From a virus: a stretch of DNA of 64,000 bases. The notes below the pieces were generated by a model. The model did no database searches. It saw only the letters and a list, made by a program, of their open reading frames with translations, and was not told the origin of the DNA. Location of the stretch: the IMG/VR virus record IMGVR_UViG_3300025816_000006, positions 98,691-162,690 of that record; one strand, 5' to 3'. The translations under genes were made by a program, and so were the position numbers. Shown here one piece after another: positions 40,250 to 64,000 of the stretch; position 1 is the stretch's first letter; each line of letters opens with the position of its first letter.

Positions 40250-40325
40250 GTGAGTGACGGGATTTGCACCCGCGAATCTAGTCTTGTCGATCTGTCTAAT
40301 CGCTCTAGGCTTCCGACTTCACTCA
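40250..40325 (-). ncRNA. tRNA-like structured RNA, possibly a decayed tRNA
   Basis: A perfect 7-bp acceptor stem (TGAGTGA with TCACTCA) and a T-arm (CGGG, loop TGCAAAT, CCCG) enclose 76 bases. The middle cannot be folded into normal D and anticodon arms; the best hairpin is CGAT-TAGACAG-ATCG with A instead of U before the anticodon. Its T-loop is nearly the same as that of the adjacent tmRNA. It may be a decayed tRNA or a functional tRNA mimic. Confidence 0.45.
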
Positions 40326-40334
40326 TTTGTGCTA

Positions 40335-40583
40335 CGATATAGTAAAGCCCCGTTTGGATAATAAGGACGAGGCGACTCCCCAGACAGCTTACGCTGCCAA
40401 TGCGAGACTTTCATCTGCAATTAAAAGGTTGATAGATTTTTAACGTAGCCCTTCTATCAACTACGGCATGAGATACATTACGTCATATTGTATGTCGAAT
40501 CTAAGTCATCCCCGTAAGTGGAGATGGAGGGAATTGCACCCTCGTCCATGACAACATCAATAATAATCTTTATACATGCTTGT
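40335..40583 (-). ncRNA. ssrA: Circularly permuted tmRNA
   Basis: The 3' half comes first: AAGCATGTA, GGACGAGGG, a T-arm and CATCTCC-A at 40519-40583. Five bases later the 5' half begins GGGGATGACTTAGATTCGAC (40513), pairing CATCTCC with GGGGATG as the acceptor stem. A pseudoknot follows (GTAG/CTAC and TTGATAG/CTATCAA), then the tag frame GCA...TAA at 40389-40418 encoding ADESLALAA. A hairpin GGCAGC-GTAA-GCTGTC closes over the stop, and a further pseudoknot uses CGGGGC. The usual tmRNA gene order is reversed, as in two-piece tmRNAs. The 3' boundary near 40335 is approximate. Confidence 0.88.
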
Positions 40584-40957
40584 TAAAATGGCCCATCGTC
40601 TGCGCTATCATGAAATCTTGTGATAGCTTTCTCTAACGCTCCCTTAAACTTACCTGTAACAACATAAGAAAAACTACCGTCTGCTTCCACCATCTGCTCT
40701 AGCATCCCTTGGTGAAACATCATAAACAATTCTTCGCCAACATATTGCATGGCGACTTCTTTCATTTTTAGTATTGATGGCTTATCGTTCATTTCAAATT
40801 TCATTATGTTAAAGGAAACGCTTTCTGATTCTGGTCTTATATTCTCCACTTTATTCAAGTGGGACTTTGCTTTTCTCATAGTATCATACACGCCAAGTGG
40901 CTCAGAAACAACTCTTTCAGGCGTACTAATCAACATTTCTAATAAATATACTGTCAT
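40583..40957 (-). CDS. Unknown protein
   Basis: A 124-residue protein: MTVYLLEMLISTPERVVSEP and FNIMKFEMNDKPSILKMKEV suggest a beta-alpha sandwich; C-terminal half helical. Its stop abuts the tmRNA acceptor piece. Not recognised. Confidence 0.5.
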   Translation of the reverse strand: MTVYLLEMLISTPERVVSEPLGVYDTMRKAKSHLNKVENIRPESESVSFNIMKFEMNDKPSILKMKEVAMQYVGEELFMMFHQGMLEQMVEADGSFSYVVTGKFKGALEKAITRFHDSADDGPF

Positions 40958-59075: not shown

Positions 59076-59103
59076 ATTATACCATTATATCGTCATATGT
59101 CAA
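59076..59103 (-). promoter_or_regulatory. CGATA-type promoter
   Basis: TTGACA, four bases, ACGATAT, then TATAAT with 16-base spacing. Confidence 0.85.
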
Positions 59104-59193
59104 TACATACTTTACATAAACCGTTGATATATATAGACTTACAACGAATACATAAATATATATTTGAATGGTATGATATTTGCGTCTTGATTT

Positions 59194-59280
59194 GACGTAA
59201 CCCTATGGTATGAAAGGACTTAGGGCGATGGGGGCGGCCCCGCCCGCCGTAAACCCTTACTGCGTAAGGACTTACGTCAG
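59194..59280 (-). repeat. Three-hairpin intergenic element, copy 1
   Basis: On the minus strand: CGTAAGTCCTTAC with GTAAGGGTTTACG, a GC-rich palindrome (GGGGC/GCCCC), then CCTAAGTCCTTT with a partial partner. Upstream flank shares ATTTTATxGGATTT with copy 3. Confidence 0.8.
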
Positions 59281-59367
59281 AGCGCGAATCAGTCACCAGT
59301 CAGCCAGTACACCCAAATCCACAAAAATAAAATAATAAAAAAATGAATCATGTCAACCCCCAAGGTA

Positions 59368-59400
59368 GAAAATCCCGCACCCCCAACGGGGGGATGCGGG
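59368..59400 (-). terminator. Rho-independent terminator after the DUF932 gene
   Basis: Stem CCCGCA-T-CCCCC with GGGGGTGCGGG (one bulge), loop CGTT-like, then ATTTTCT on the minus strand. Confidence 0.85.
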
Positions 59401-59417
59401 TAACACACCTTGATCGA

Positions 59418-60308
59418 CTACGCAGCAGCAGCGAGAGCGAGCGTCTCAGCCGTTCTGACTGCTCTGTTGTCCGATGCCTTGAGGATACGGTCAAACTCGC
59501 CTTTGAACCCCTCACGCCTCGGAGCGTCCCACTGGTTGAACCCCTGAACGGCATTGTATGCCTCCCAAGCGGAAACCTCAAAACCTGAACCGATAGCAGG
59601 TCTGCCGGTCTTGATTCTCTCACGCTGCAAACGCTGGAAAATCTTTTCAGTGCGATTCTTGTGAATCGTTACCGCACGTTGACCAGCATCGGCATCCGGT
59701 TCTGGATACACAGCGTTCAGGAAGTCTACCATCTGAACGGGTGCTGCCTGCATACCGTGGACGAGATTCTCCAAGGTTTGCCAACCATCTTTCAGACTTT
59801 GAAACTGCCCAATCAGTTCATCCATCGCGAAACGCAACCCGCTAGTATGGCGGATCGACTGGTAAGTCTCGGAAACGCTGCGAAGCATTGCGAGATTTGA
59901 GCAAGCATCGCGATAAATGCCCAAAGTGACGTTGAACGCACTGCGATCATAACCGCCACGGATGATAAGACGAGGGAAAATGTTGTCGTTGGACCCATAA
60001 ATGGACCGGCGATAGTCGTCAGACGGTGCGATGGAAACATAGTGACCATTGCGGAAATGCGTCTTGACTTGTGATGCCTCGTCGAATACACTTTCGCAAG
60101 CGTCAACGAGAGCAACCACATCCTCCGTTTGGTGAGGAGTGTAACGGTCAGTAACCGAACCCTCCCCAACAACCTCGCTGGAATCGGATCGGAACATAGC
60201 GTACCAAGGTGTACGCATACCGTCAGGACCGGACAAGGGAAACTTGTCAACGGTGAAATCGAAAGCGGCAGCAACTTGGTCAGCAGCAGAAATAGTAGCG
60301 TTACTCAT
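59418..60308 (-). CDS. DUF932 phage/plasmid-like protein
   Basis: A 296-residue protein: VVGEGSVTDRYTPHQTEDVV, FRNGHYVSIAPSDDYRRSIY, DNIFPRLIIRGGYDRSAFNV, TLGIYRDACSNLAMLRSVSE and the C-terminal NRTEKIFQRLQRERIKTGRP match the DUF932 family found in phages and plasmids. Function unknown. Its higher GC than its neighbours may indicate separate acquisition. Confidence 0.85.
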   Translation of the reverse strand: MSNATISAADQVAAAFDFTVDKFPLSGPDGMRTPWYAMFRSDSSEVVGEGSVTDRYTPHQTEDVVALVDACESVFDEASQVKTHFRNGHYVSIAPSDDYRRSIYGSNDNIFPRLIIRGGYDRSAFNVTLGIYRDACSNLAMLRSVSETYQSIRHTSGLRFAMDELIGQFQSLKDGWQTLENLVHGMQAAPVQMVDFLNAVYPEPDADAGQRAVTIHKNRTEKIFQRLQRERIKTGRPAIGSGFEVSAWEAYNAVQGFNQWDAPRREGFKGEFDRILKASDNRAVRTAETLALAAAA

Positions 60309-60358
60309 AGGAAAATCTCCAAAGGTGTGAAAAACAAAATCGTTCGTGTTATGCCCCC

Positions 60359-60386
60359 ATTATACAGTATTCATCGTCCATGTCAA
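60359..60386 (-). promoter_or_regulatory. CGATG-variant promoter for the DUF932 gene
   Basis: TTGACA, three bases, ACGATGA, then TATAAT with 16-base spacing. Confidence 0.85.
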
Positions 60387-60453
60387 CCCCCAAGCTACAA
60401 TCTTTTGTGGTATTTTGCCGGAAATCTTTTGGCACAGTATTTGCACTGGTGAT

Positions 60454-60538
60454 TTGTCGTAAGTCGTTGCCACCAAAGGACTTAGGTCCGGCGGGGCGGC
60501 CCCAATCGCCGTAAGTACTTACAGCGAAAGGGTTTAGG
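60454..60538 (-). repeat. Three-hairpin intergenic element, copy 2
   Basis: Same layout as the others but with a diverged first hairpin; GGGGCCGCCCC palindrome, then CCTAAGTCCTTT and AACGACTTACG. It begins directly after the stop codon at 60539. Confidence 0.75.
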
Positions 60539-61315
60539 TTAAAGGGCTAACTCTTTTTCCTTTTCCTTAATAAACGAATCAAGCAGAGAATAGTTGATCG
60601 TTTTCTGATCTTTATATCCAATGTTCCTAAGATCAAAGTCAAAACCGAACTTACAAGAATCTGAATAGTTTGTCTGAAGGCATAGGTTCATCGGCACACC
60701 TTGACCACTTTCTTTGTATGTTAGCAATTCATACACTGGATCACCAACACTTAGACTGAGCGCATTAGCGTATCTGCCAGCCGCATTGTTGGTAGACCAT
60801 CTTGCCGCTGGATGATGGTCACTGTAATCCCAAGTAGAATTAGAACGATCTGCACCACACCAATTTGACGCAAGAAAATAATCATCTGCTAAACTAGGTA
60901 CAAGTTGATCCCTGAGCCAATTTCTGTTTTCTAGAGTTGGTTCGCTACAGCTATCAATATACGCAAAATCAAAACCGTTTGGTGCATATTTCCTGAACGT
61001 ATCGTTACTTATTTTGTTCAGATCGTCACAGATAACAGTGACATTTTTGTATCCACGTTCTCTTAGGGTTGTGCGGATATGACCAGCAATCCGTCCCTTC
61101 TTTTCTACCGCTACAATATTTGTTCTCTTGCCTACCATTCTTAGCTTTTCCATAACTCTTAGGTCAAGCATACCAATAGAAGGCAAGATCAATAAATTCT
61201 TGATATTATATTGGGAGCCATAGTGGTGTTTTTTTCTGGCACACTTTACAATGTTAATTAGATTGTATGTTACTTGCTCTTTAATATCTCGCTGCTTTAG
61301 TGGGTTGTAATCCAC
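60539..61315 (-). CDS. SAM-methyltransferase-fold protein
   Basis: A 258-residue protein starting at GTG after GGAG. IKNLLILPSIGMLDLRVMEK, NIVAVEKKGRIAGHIRTTLR, NVTVICDDLNKI and NGFDFAYIDSCSEP follow the strands of class I methyltransferases; E in VAVEKK and D in ICDD would bind SAM. Substrate unknown. Confidence 0.6.
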   Translation of the reverse strand: MDYNPLKQRDIKEQVTYNLINIVKCARKKHHYGSQYNIKNLLILPSIGMLDLRVMEKLRMVGKRTNIVAVEKKGRIAGHIRTTLRERGYKNVTVICDDLNKISNDTFRKYAPNGFDFAYIDSCSEPTLENRNWLRDQLVPSLADDYFLASNWCGADRSNSTWDYSDHHPAARWSTNNAAGRYANALSLSVGDPVYELLTYKESGQGVPMNLCLQTNYSDSCKFGFDFDLRNIGYKDQKTINYSLLDSFIKEKEKELAL

Positions 61316-61352
61316 GGTAATCTCCTTTTTGTAGTGTGTTAGTTATGCTTTA

Positions 61353-61380
61353 AGTATACAACTATTATCGTCACTGTCAA
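61353..61380 (-). promoter_or_regulatory. CGATA-type promoter
   Basis: TTGACA, three bases, ACGATAA, then TATACT with 16-base spacing. Confidence 0.88.
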
Positions 61381-61414
61381 GCCTGAAGATTAAACTTTCT
61401 TGATAAATTGTAGA

Positions 61415-61506
61415 TTGTCGTAAGTCGTTACTGTCAAAGGACTTATGGCTCGTCGGGCTGCCCCGCCGCACCTAAACCCTTACCACGTAAGGACTTAGGA
61501 CGACGA
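61415..61506 (-). repeat. Three-hairpin intergenic element, copy 3
   Basis: CCTAAGTCCTTAC pairs with GTAAGGGTTTAGG through two G-U pairs, then a GC hairpin (CGGG/CCCG), then ATAAGTCCTTT with AACGACTTACG, on the minus strand. Confidence 0.8.
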
Positions 61507-61580
61507 ATGCTGATTAGTCAAACTCCCAAAAGCTACCCAAAAAAATCCATAAAATAATCATAATAAAAAATAATATCACA

Positions 61581-62369
61581 CTACACCCCTACAGTGGGGG
61601 TACTCTTTTTACTGTAGGAAAATTTAACTTTATTTTTCTTGAGTTCTCTGATTGCCTCGCTCGCCTTGCTTCCCTTGGGTTGTGTTCCGTGAATCAGTAG
61701 AGCGAACGAATTTTTACGCTGCGAAGGAATAGCGGCGTGTGAATCGTCGTGGTCGATGATCAAACCGAGATCGTCGGCCTGCTCTTGAGAATAAACCACG
61801 ATAGCCTCCCGTAGATTATGCTCGTCGATTTTGTGATCCAAGCGACCACCACGCGATGCCGTCAATACCAAGTTTTTTGGTAGGTGTGGCTCATCGTCTA
61901 GCCAGTAGTTGAGGGATTTTGTATAGGCATAGAATAAACGGTCTGGATTCCATTCTGCGACATATTGCCACGCTCGGAAATACTTTTGATTGAAGAAGTC
62001 GCCCGCAACGTGAATCCGGCAGATACCAAGATTTGCAGGCATAACGTCGGCAATCGCACAAGCCATATCGTAAGATGATCCCATAGATTTTAGGTCTATA
62101 AAGTTTGCCATTCTTTTGTTGTATACGTTGGGTAATAAAGCCTCTTGTGATGCAGAAAAACAACGAAACTCGCACTTCTTGCCGTCTTTGATTTTGCTCT
62201 TGCCGTTGATCTTGTGGACTTTTGACAGACAAGCCTCAGCTTGTGGGCATGACCACCCGCTGATTAGGTCAAAACTGTGAACCTTACGGTTATTCTGCAA
62301 CCAATATTGCAATTCGTCAACGCTGTGTAGTTGGTCAAGTTTGGCGTTTGCCTTAGAAAATTTAAGCAT
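61581..62369 (-). CDS. gp88-family protein
   Basis: A 262-residue protein. FDLISGWSCPQAEACLSKVH, KKCEFRCFSASQEALLPNVY, ICRIHVAGDFFNQKYFRAWQ and ENPDRLFYAYTKSL-like sequence match the phage gp88 family (C-P-x-A-x-x-C, C-x-A-S-x-E). Several cysteines suggest a metal site. Function unknown. Confidence 0.8.
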   Translation of the reverse strand: MLKFSKANAKLDQLHSVDELQYWLQNNRKVHSFDLISGWSCPQAEACLSKVHKINGKSKIKDGKKCEFRCFSASQEALLPNVYNKRMANFIDLKSMGSSYDMACAIADVMPANLGICRIHVAGDFFNQKYFRAWQYVAEWNPDRLFYAYTKSLNYWLDDEPHLPKNLVLTASRGGRLDHKIDEHNLREAIVVYSQEQADDLGLIIDHDDSHAAIPSQRKNSFALLIHGTQPKGSKASEAIRELKKNKVKFSYSKKSTPTVGV

Positions 62370-62401
62370 TTTAACTCCGAGGTAGTGGTTGGTACTGTTC
62401 T

Positions 62402-62429
62402 ATTTTATACTATATCGGCAGAATGTCAA
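62402..62429 (-). promoter_or_regulatory. CGATA-type promoter for the gp88-like gene
   Basis: TTGACA, five bases, CCGATAT, then TAAAAT with 16-base spacing. The leader continues with ACCAACCACTACC. Confidence 0.85.
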
Positions 62430-62432
62430 GAC

Positions 62433-62855
62433 TTATTTACTTTTATGTGACATAATGTGAGAATCTTTTTCATCCACCCAAATATCCACGAATTTTGCAC
62501 TGGCAATGGGTTGTCCTGTTTCTCTTTCTTGGAAGGTGTCGGAGAAATAGGGATTATAATAACTTTCGGTCCATGTAAAACCCGCTTGCTTGTCGGTCTC
62601 ACGCACGTCAGCCAAATAGCCCTCAACGAACGCATGAACGTTTTTTCTTTTCTCATCCCTGACTCTCTTTTGTCCTGCCTTAGAAATTATAAACTTACAA
62701 TCCTTTAGAACTATGTTAGTAGTCCAACATTTTACGATCCCGCCCTGTTTTACGCTTATGCACTTGCGGTGAAGGTTACGATATACGCGAACCTTTTTGG
62801 TTGGGTCGATGTGCTGGATAACGTCGCGATTTGTTTCGCATACTGGTTTTTTCAT
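62433..62855 (-). CDS. Phage protein of unknown function
   Basis: A 140-residue protein: VRVYRNLHRKCISVKQGGIV, KAGQKRVRDEKRKNVHAFVE and PYFSDTFQERETGQPIASAK. The VYRNLHxKC plus AGxxRVxxEKRKNVHAFV pattern occurs in phage genomes; role unknown. Confidence 0.75.
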   Translation of the reverse strand: MKKPVCETNRDVIQHIDPTKKVRVYRNLHRKCISVKQGGIVKCWTTNIVLKDCKFIISKAGQKRVRDEKRKNVHAFVEGYLADVRETDKQAGFTWTESYYNPYFSDTFQERETGQPIASAKFVDIWVDEKDSHIMSHKSK

Positions 62856-62885
62856 GTTTTCCTTTCGTGTTGTTGATACTCTCCC

Positions 62886-62912
62886 ATTATACCCTTATAT
62901 CGTCAATGTCAA
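62886..62912 (-). promoter_or_regulatory. CGATA-type promoter
   Basis: TTGACA, three bases, ACGATAT, then TATAAT with 15-base spacing. Confidence 0.85.
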
Positions 62913-62941
62913 TGGGTAAACTTTAGGAAATACAAGAATAG

Positions 62942-63026
62942 TTGTAAGTCGTTATAGAGAAAGGACTTACGTCGGGCGGGGGCCGCCCCGCCGCACCTAA
63001 ACCCTTGTCAGATAAGGACTTAGGTC
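62942..63026 (-). repeat. Three-hairpin intergenic element, copy 4
   Basis: ACCTAAGTCCTT with AAGGGTTTAGGT, GGCGGGG-CGGC-CCCCGCC, and CGTAAGTCCTTT with AACGACTTAC on the minus strand. It follows the tRNA-like sequence at 63027. Confidence 0.8.
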
Positions 63027-63245
63027 AAAAGTACCTCGCGAGGGAATCGAACCCCCGCGCCCCCCGCTAATCGCATCATGCACAACACTTTTAGCTTCGG
63101 ACTGTCCGCGAAACAGTCATCGGAATAACCCGCAGGCGACCCACCAAGGTCAAGGCGAATCAAAAAGAAAGAAGCGGCCATCTCTTGCACCGATACCCCG
63201 CAGGGCAGAGGGAAAGACTTACAGGATGACCGCCACTCTCCATTC
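63027..63245 (-). ncRNA. Structured RNA candidate ending in a tRNA-like T-arm
   Basis: The minus strand ends with CGCGGGGG-TTCGATT-CCCTCGCG-AGGTA, a T-loop consensus on an extended stem. Upstream are GACTGT-TTCGCGG-ACAGTC and a 9-bp stem GCGGTCATC/GATGGCCGC. No 5' acceptor strand for a normal tRNA was found, so this may be a remnant, a tRNA mimic or an attachment-site core. Confidence 0.45.
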
Positions 63246-63482: not shown

Positions 63483-63633
63483 TACTCAATACCTCTTTTT
63501 CTACAGTTGCGAATGTGAGAGACTGAACGCCAGCCTCACCAAGTACCTCAATTTTACCACGAAAAATGCCAGTTACAACACCTTTCTTCAATTTTGTGCC
63601 AAGTTTTACAACTGGCGTTTGTGGATCAACCAT
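63475..63633 (-). CDS. Small SH3-like or KOW-like protein
   Basis: From the ATG at 63633 (GGAG seven bases upstream): MVDPQTPVVKLGTKLKKGVV, then TGIFRGKIEVLGEAGVQSLT. Short beta strands around glycine turns; 52 residues. A longer start has no ribosome site. Confidence 0.55.
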   Translation of the reverse strand: MVDPQTPVVKLGTKLKKGVVTGIFRGKIEVLGEAGVQSLTFATVEKEVLSNG

Positions 63634-63868
63634 CCTCATTCTCCTTTTCGAGTTTTGCTGCTTCTGCCCTTGCTGCTTCCGCAGCTTCCTCGGCACGATC
63701 TTTACGGATACGATCCGCTTTACTGTTTAGTGTCTCTGCTAGTGAGAGATACTGATCGTCTGTCATTGTAACACAGACTTCGTTCTGATCGGAATCGTTG
63801 AACGTCAGTGCTTTCCAGCCAGTGTAAGCGTGATCGAATTTTAACTCTACGGTAGTTTTGACTTTCAT
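63626..63868 (-). CDS. Small protein with Ala/Glu-rich coiled-coil tail
   Basis: From the ATG at 63868 after GGAG: MKVKTTVELKFDHAYTGWKA, VCVTMTDDQYLSLAETLNSK, then RAEEAAEAARAEAAKLEKEN. Beta domain plus a helical tail. Not recognised. Confidence 0.6.
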   Translation of the reverse strand: MKVKTTVELKFDHAYTGWKALTFNDSDQNEVCVTMTDDQYLSLAETLNSKADRIRKDRAEEAAEAARAEAAKLEKENEDG

Positions 63869-63905
63869 AAGTCTCTCCAAAAGGGGTTGTGAACTGAACT
63901 CTTCT

Positions 63906-63933
63906 ATTATACTATACTTATCGGGCTTGTCAA
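63906..63933 (-). promoter_or_regulatory. CGATA-type promoter
   Basis: TTGACA, three bases, CCGATAA, then TATAAT with 16-base spacing. Confidence 0.88.
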
Positions 63934-63942
63934 GAAAAAACT

Positions 63943-64000
63943 TTAGAATCCATGTTGATATTTCTCAGGTAATTTGCAGTACCAAGACAGCATATCTTTC
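63943..64000 (-). CDS. C-terminus of a gene running off the window
   Basis: An open frame enters from the right edge and ends KDMLSWYCKLPEKYQHGF with TAA, ten bases before the promoter. It is placed like the end of another single-gene unit. Too short to identify. Confidence 0.4.
   Translation of the reverse strand, partial: KDMLSWYCKLPEKYQHGF

What the first reader, a model, noticed from the sequence alone, without database searches (positions are those of the whole stretch)
59194..63026. Four copies of a three-hairpin element between single-gene units
Seen: at 59194, 60454, 61415 and 62942 a ~90-base element follows a gene and precedes the next promoter. Its first arm pairs CCTAAGTCCTTA with TAAGGGTTTAGG using two G-U pairs, which work only in minus-strand RNA. 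The centre is a GC palindrome and the third arm reuses TAAGTCCTT. Co-variation of the stems across copies supports RNA structure. It could be a terminator, an RNase site, or a recombination site that moves gene cassettes.
Basis: partly seen in the sequence, partly recalled or inferred. Interest (0 to 1): 0.75.

Follow-up and report, generated by a model that had tools for sequence, protein, structure and literature searches.

The report
Paired operator sites before phage promoters
A ~100-base two-part DNA signal, wrongly suspected of being an RNA hairpin, sits at a fixed helical distance upstream of the early promoters in one gene array of a large, uncultured group of phages, and is most likely the docking site of an unidentified protein that switches these exchangeable one-gene units.

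Summary
The four copies are real, and the contig holds ten, in one array across its ends. Each is two ~33-bp imperfect dyads (GnCGTAAGTCCTT-N7-AAGGACTTACGnC), 52-53 bp apart, around a GC palindrome.

The element is widespread in IMG/VR phages: ~1,250 distinct half-sites and 523 pairs in ~200 loci. It occurs as one array per phage, 1.5-5 kb from a late-sigma-like gene in most members checked.

The RNA reading fails. There is no covariation in shuffle tests. Perfect arms are avoided tenfold (12 vs 117) and sense-strand G-U is not favoured. T-runs are absent.

The DNA reading is strongly supported. 74% of elements have an outward sigma-70-type promoter within 300 bp. The distance from dyad to -35 is helically phased (20, 30-31, 41, 52, 61; Rayleigh p ~1e-29, replicated at 8e-6 in independently recruited loci). 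The two dyads are 4, 5 or 6 turns apart, and the promoter-facing arm is distinct.

Best reading: an oriented upstream operator, probably an activator site, on modular early-gene cassettes. It works like a PeSL but is built differently. The protein is unknown.

The parts
59186..59287 (-). Element copy 1: dyad cores 59198-59222 (promoter-proximal) and 59250-59274 around GC palindrome
   Evidence: Repeat search, alignment, PWM positions
59076..59103 (-). Sigma-70-type promoter TTGACATATGACGATATAATGGTATAAT, -35 94 bp from dyad edge of copy 1
   Evidence: Promoter score 17.4
60448..60549 (-). Element copy 2: dyad cores 60460-60484 and 60512-60536 (outer arm reversed relative to the other copies)
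60359..60386 (-). Promoter TTGACATGGACGATGAATACTGTATAAT, 73 bp from dyad edge (in phase), drives 59418-60308
59418..60308 (-). Cassette gene, DUF932 protein (296 aa)
   Evidence: Pfam PF06067 1.5e-13
61409..61510 (-). Element copy 3: dyad cores 61421-61445 and 61473-61497
61353..61380 (-). Promoter TTGACAGTGACGATAATAGTTGTATACT, 40 bp from dyad edge (in phase), drives 60539-61315
60539..61315 (-). Cassette gene, 258 aa, no family match
61581..62369 (-). Cassette gene, GP88 family (262 aa)
   Evidence: Pfam PF17338 6.4e-36
62433..62855 (-). Cassette gene, mycobacteriophage L5 gp82 family (140 aa)
   Evidence: Pfam PF25735 1.1e-28
62886..62912 (-). Promoter TTGACATTGACGATATAAGGGTATAAT (15-bp spacer; read by eye), 32 bp from dyad edge, drives 62433-62855
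   Evidence: Sequence; the automatic scan with spacers 16-18 did not report it
62933..63035 (-). Element copy 4: dyad cores 62945-62969 and 62998-63022

Best explanation
The element is a double-stranded DNA regulatory site, not an RNA structure. [quoted passage not shown] The complex sits upstream of an early sigma-70-type promoter, at distances that keep it on one face relative to RNA polymerase, and the promoter-facing arm carries a distinct base, so the site points at its promoter. I think it most likely acts as a class-I-like upstream activating site for early genes (activator about 0.5, repressor or silencer about 0.25). Element, AT-rich linker, promoter and gene form a portable unit, and the repeated element also serves as a joint at which such units are exchanged. 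Shown: the sites, their symmetry, spacing, promoter association, helical phasing, polarity, single array per phage and absence of covariation. Inferred: protein binding, activation, and early expression. The protein is unknown.
For: Phasing: dyad-edge to -35 distance peaks at 20, 30-31, 40-42, 51-53 and 61, with near-empty troughs between. Rayleigh p ~1e-29 for 319 promoters; independent replication in 59 loci recruited by the sigma protein gives R=0.73, 22 promoters, p 8e-6, similar phase. Outward promoters on 376 of 936 flanks against 128 inward and 83-95 shuffled; 346 of 468 elements have one. Dyad-dyad spacing 53/52/50, 41-42 and 60-64 with a trough at 43-47. Polarity: promoter-proximal dyad 95 vs 14 (p 6e-16); promoter-facing arm C at position 18 in 177/286 vs 54/286 for the mirror arm, replicated 15/21 vs 4/21. 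Spacer inside the dyad is always 7: spacer-6 pattern 1 chance hit, spacer-7 at least 119 stretches. One array per phage, beside the sigma-like gene in most, with the array promoters on one strand in most phages. Found upstream of sigma in 17/21 independently recruited loci with at least 4 kb of upstream sequence.
Against: No binding protein was identified: no core gene separates element-bearing phages from the element-free relative G451, which keeps the same promoter array. The promoters are near consensus and might need no activator. Some distances in the window's own genome are out of phase (49, 110, 111). The 4-turn and 6-turn classes rest on few phages. Promoters and ORFs are predictions; no expression data exist. 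Sampling is by sequence pattern and phages are related, so p-values are approximate.
Confidence: 0.68

Rival explanations
1. Repressor or silencer operator: a phage protein made during infection binds the paired dyads and shuts early promoters by looping or by blocking polymerase, as GalR does at gal or stoperators do in cluster A mycobacteriophages.
For: Paired dyads on one helix face suit cooperative binding or looping; strong consensus promoters next to the sites would need shutting off. Helical phasing is also required for looping repression at gal (PMC4693257).
Against: The sites lie upstream of -35 (mostly 20-62 bp), not over the promoter; no partner operator downstream of the promoter was noticed; no phage gene tracks the element.
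Confidence: 0.22
2. Selfish or structural joint: a recombination hot spot or mobile element whose main role is to move gene cassettes, promoter proximity being secondary.
For: Element versus longer interval that still holds the element in 128 comparisons, most often element-cassette-element; homology breakpoints fall in elements 1.76 times expectation at 85% identity (83 vs 47, p 3e-7).
Against: No tyrosine recombinase in 49 records or the own contig; no clean empty site or target duplication, and the element is retained in 482 of 492 comparisons; helical phasing and polarity toward promoters are not needed for a joint.
Confidence: 0.12
3. RNA element at the 3' end of the upstream transcript: terminator, RNase site or stabiliser.
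For: Hairpins can form on either strand, shuffled-sequence z about -2.5; lies after genes; terminators reading toward the element are enriched nearby, 55 vs 16 shuffled.
Against: No covariation (0.140 vs 0.135 shuffled; both-sided changes 12 vs 15.5, below all shuffles); anti-covariation at core positions (z -5 to -8); perfect arms depleted tenfold; G-U 271 vs A-C 318 on sense strand; terminator calls in only 9 of 936 element strands; no Rfam family.
Confidence: 0.04
4. Binding sites of a host nucleoid or replication protein (for example an origin or partition array) that happen to lie between genes.
For: One array per genome at one place, at the switch between early and late transcription.
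Against: Sites follow promoters one by one over 8-17 kb, with phase and polarity; not found in 398 Pseudomonadota genomes beyond one chance match.
Confidence: 0.06

Closest known systems
PeSLs (promoter early stem-loops) of T4-type phages (Arbiol 2010, Comeau 2014; both read only as cited in PMC4503421 and PMC3950731)
   Same: Repeated intergenic element next to an early promoter, in a plastic region of small genes, linked to shuffling of gene units.
   Different: PeSLs pair a stem-loop (terminator) with the promoter; here the conserved part is two dyads phased to the promoter, with no terminator and no covariation. The element-free relative G451 looks more like a classical PeSL (GC hairpin plus T-run, then promoter).
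17-bp palindromic repeats of cluster O mycobacteriophages (PMC4351075)
   Same: About 34 dyad sites, the intergenic ones mostly in the leftward-transcribed region, no clear site orientation; proposed dimer binding; insertions and deletions between repeats.
   Different: Single 7-3-7 palindromes with invariant arms, about one third inside genes, no reported pairing, promoter phasing or polarity; here arms must differ and sites come in phased pairs.
SAS/ESAS of cluster K mycobacteriophages (PMC3203893)
   Same: Imperfect 17-bp inverted repeats associated with a subset of genes.
   Different: Tied to translation start sites, with a variable spacer; here tied to promoters with a fixed 7-bp internal spacer.
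Class I activator sites (CRP) and gal operators (PMC4693257)
   Same: Dyad upstream of RNA polymerase whose effect depends on helical face.
   Different: Sequence, tandem phased dyads and phage-wide array are different; no protein known.

Membership tests
PeSL (T4-type) | Early promoter adjacent to the repeated element | tested here: met
   346/468 elements, outward only
PeSL (T4-type) | Stem-loop that works as terminator of the upstream gene | tested here: not met
   Terminator calls in 9 of 936 element strands; no covariation
PeSL (T4-type) | Located in a T4-type phage genome | tested here: inconclusive
   RIIA/RIIB-like protein present but terminase nearest to Bacillus Slash-like and Microcystis MaeS phages at about 27%
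PeSL (T4-type) | Sites of module exchange | tested here: inconclusive
   Element versus element-cassette-element; breakpoints 1.4-1.8x
Integron attC / tyrosine recombinase site | Integrase in the same genome | tested here: not met
   0 of 49 records and 0 in own contig
Integron attC / tyrosine recombinase site | Conserved R box GTTRRRY/RYYYAAC | tested here: not met
   Arms are TAAGTCCTT variants; attC consensus from own knowledge
Intrinsic terminator | GC stem followed by U-run | tested here: not met
Structured RNA family | Compensatory changes or Rfam match | tested here: not met
MITE-like insertion | Empty sites with target duplication | tested here: not met
   482 of 492 flank-matched places keep the element; no clean empty site
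Class I upstream activator site | Helical-phase-dependent position upstream of -35 | tested here: met
Class I upstream activator site | Binding of an activator and stimulation of transcription | not testable with these tools
   No protein known; no expression data

The most novel reading that the evidence does not exclude
A large uncultured phage lineage controls one array of exchangeable early genes through oriented, enhancer-like pairs of dyads read by a dedicated, still unknown protein (host or phage), so any gene dropped behind such an element joins the same regulon.
Probability: 0.4. Interest if true: 0.82.

Novelty: new variant of a known kind. Interest (0 to 1): 0.68.

Why it matters
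Phages swap early genes constantly, yet the new genes must be expressed at the right time. This element suggests a standard plug-in regulatory address shared across a widespread lineage that has no match in the isolate-phage collection searched. The helical phasing makes a sharp, cheap test possible (5-bp versus 10-bp insertions), the element marks where fast-evolving host-takeover or defence genes may sit in metagenomic phages, and its protein partner would be a new regulator to identify.

Tried and rejected
Two collection scans used a pattern with a 6-base internal spacer by mistake. They returned only chance hits and became a negative control, but spent the one genome-contig scan, so host genomes were searched only in 398 Pseudomonadota, 4 other genomes and 2 plasmids.

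RNA structure: rejected by three tests. An early apparent covariation at loop positions 10/14 vanished under within-genome shuffling. Randomly flipping sites gave an artefact of general negative covariation, replaced.

Phage-coded tyrosine recombinase: none. Isolated phages and plasmids: no DNA match to the array in the phages, and only weak or chance hits to a 37-base consensus in either. Printed sequence in papers: none found.

Search for the cognate protein by comparing element-bearing phages with element-free G451 gave one candidate, a glycosyltransferase that G451 also has by tblastn. Planctomycete host idea: a recalled resemblance only, could not be tested at phylum level.

G032 showed no sites in its first 180 kb; its last 14.5 kb was not fetched.

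Full report
Setting. The window is the last 64 kb of a 162,690-b IMG/VR virus contig. The phage encodes an RIIA/RIIB-like protein, a permuted tmRNA and a late-sigma-like region-2 protein. Its terminase resembles Bacillus Slash-like and Microcystis MaeS phages at about 27% identity, and its probable major capsid protein has no match among isolated phages, so it is only distantly related to isolates. The contig ends overlap by 473 b at 94%, which suggests a circularly permuted genome; the array crosses that junction.

Observation. The four copies exist where stated and six more lie in the first 8 kb of the contig. Each element is two imperfect dyads, TAAGTCCTT-like arms around exactly 7 variable bases, 52-53 bp apart, with a GC-rich palindrome between.

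Spread. The pattern TAAACCCTT-N7-AAGGACTTA finds at least 119 stretches in IMG/VR, as does TAAGTCGTT-N7-AAGGASTTA, while a spacer of 6 finds one. In 1.92 Mb of fetched loci a weight matrix finds 1,358 sites against 1 in shuffled sequence; about 83% have a partner at a preferred distance. Spacings are 53, 52, 50 (five turns), 41-42 (four) and 60-64 (six), with almost nothing at 43-47. Nothing comparable was found in isolated phages, plasmids or 398 Pseudomonadota genomes.

One array per phage. In the own contig and in 16 of 17 other phages fetched largely whole, the sites form one main cluster, mostly 7-17 kb long. Most of these phages share terminase, a sigma-like protein, RecA, an ERCC4 nuclease and other core genes, so they form one lineage. 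In most the array sits beside the sigma-like gene, at the turn from early leftward to late rightward genes. As an independent test, loci recruited by the sigma protein alone have the array upstream in 9 of 11 cases with over 8 kb of upstream sequence and 8 of 10 with 4-8 kb, while 699 kb downstream hold 2 sites.

RNA or DNA? RNA fails. On 50 gapless elements the three-hairpin structure has a covariation score of 0.140 against 0.135 shuffled, and fewer both-sided changes than any shuffle; the alternative long hairpin is no better. With shuffling inside each genome, no symmetric pair shows strong positive covariation (best z +2.5) and core positions 3-6, 9 and 11 show z of -5 to -8. Perfect arms occur 12 times against 117 expected (p 2e-37), again 1 against 9 in the replication loci. 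G-U is not favoured over A-C on the sense strand (271 vs 318), and the two strands fold equally well.

DNA holds. Sigma-70-type promoters point away from the element on 376 of 936 flanks against 128 pointing toward it. Measured from the dyad edge, the -35 hexamer begins at 20, 30-31, 40-42, 51-53 or 61, one helical turn apart. Rayleigh R is 0.46 for 319 promoters, and 0.73 for 22 promoters in independently recruited loci at a similar phase (p-values). The promoter-proximal dyad has a fixed polarity, 95 to 14, with AACGACTTA facing the promoter, replicated in new loci. If the -35 hexamer starts at -35, the proximal dyad is centred near -68, -79, -89 or -100 (inference). Helical face dependence is the mark of activators and of operator pairs (PMC4693257).

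In the window's own genome the distances are 94, 73, 40 and 32 for the four window copies. On the other side of the junction they are 32 and 41, then 49, 110 and 111, which fit less well, and 175 for one copy (the 32 for copy 4 read by eye).

Modularity. When flanks match between phages the element is kept in 482 of 492 comparisons. In 128 the second phage has a longer interval that still contains the element, most often element, extra cassette, element. Homology ends fall in elements 1.4-1.8 times more than expected, against 1.0-1.3 for other intergenic DNA. This supports exchange at elements, modestly.

The partner. No tyrosine recombinase is encoded. A relative, G451, has no element at all but keeps 21 promoters of the same class, most of them in the same place, with GC hairpins and T-runs upstream of promoters. 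No core gene separates it from element-bearing phages. So the reader of the site is a host protein, an accessory or fast-evolving phage protein, or a protein with other duties.

Unexplained. Why two identical arms are avoided is not settled. Polarity explains part of it for the promoter-proximal dyad; avoidance of hairpins in single strands is an alternative.

Verdict. An ordinary-looking RNA repeat turns out to be an oriented, helically phased, paired operator that marks early-gene cassettes across an uncultured phage lineage. It works like a PeSL and like a class I activator site, but is not shown to be a member of either on the tests made.

Noticed in passing
L007 5916, 6138, 7432, 7629 (minus); about 40 related loci: A second array-specific motif, TGACCTAACGTGTCA, lies at or near the -35 region of other array promoters; all four L007 copies lie on the same strand.
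   Followed up: partly
window 59076-62912 promoters; 196 of 333 element-linked promoters: Early promoters of the array often carry CGATA inside the -35/-10 spacer (TTGACA..CGATA..TATAAT), also in the element-free relative G451.
   Followed up: partly
L357 1-10000, L403 1-10000 (G451, G452): Relatives that lack the element but keep the promoter array; L357 has GC hairpin plus T-run terminators before promoters, a classical PeSL layout.
   Followed up: partly
window 63528-64000 and L007 1-464: Contig ends overlap by 473 b at 93.7% identity: circular permutation with strain variants, or a duplicated cassette.
   Followed up: partly
window 63040-63160; L007 4600-4760: Non-coding stretches with tRNA T-arm-like sequences (GGTTCGATTCC and similar) that ARAGORN does not call as tRNAs; possible tRNA-mimic cassettes.
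   Followed up: partly
L007 10758-11270 and 11251-12042: A sigma region-2 protein followed by a 263-aa protein with a region-4-like helix-turn-helix by eye: possibly a split late sigma factor.
   Followed up: no
window 40298-40612: Phage-borne permuted tmRNA with tag ADESLALAA.
   Followed up: no
sigma-recruited loci L333-L411: Many contigs end 1-3 kb upstream of the sigma gene, as if assemblies break at the repeated array.
   Followed up: no
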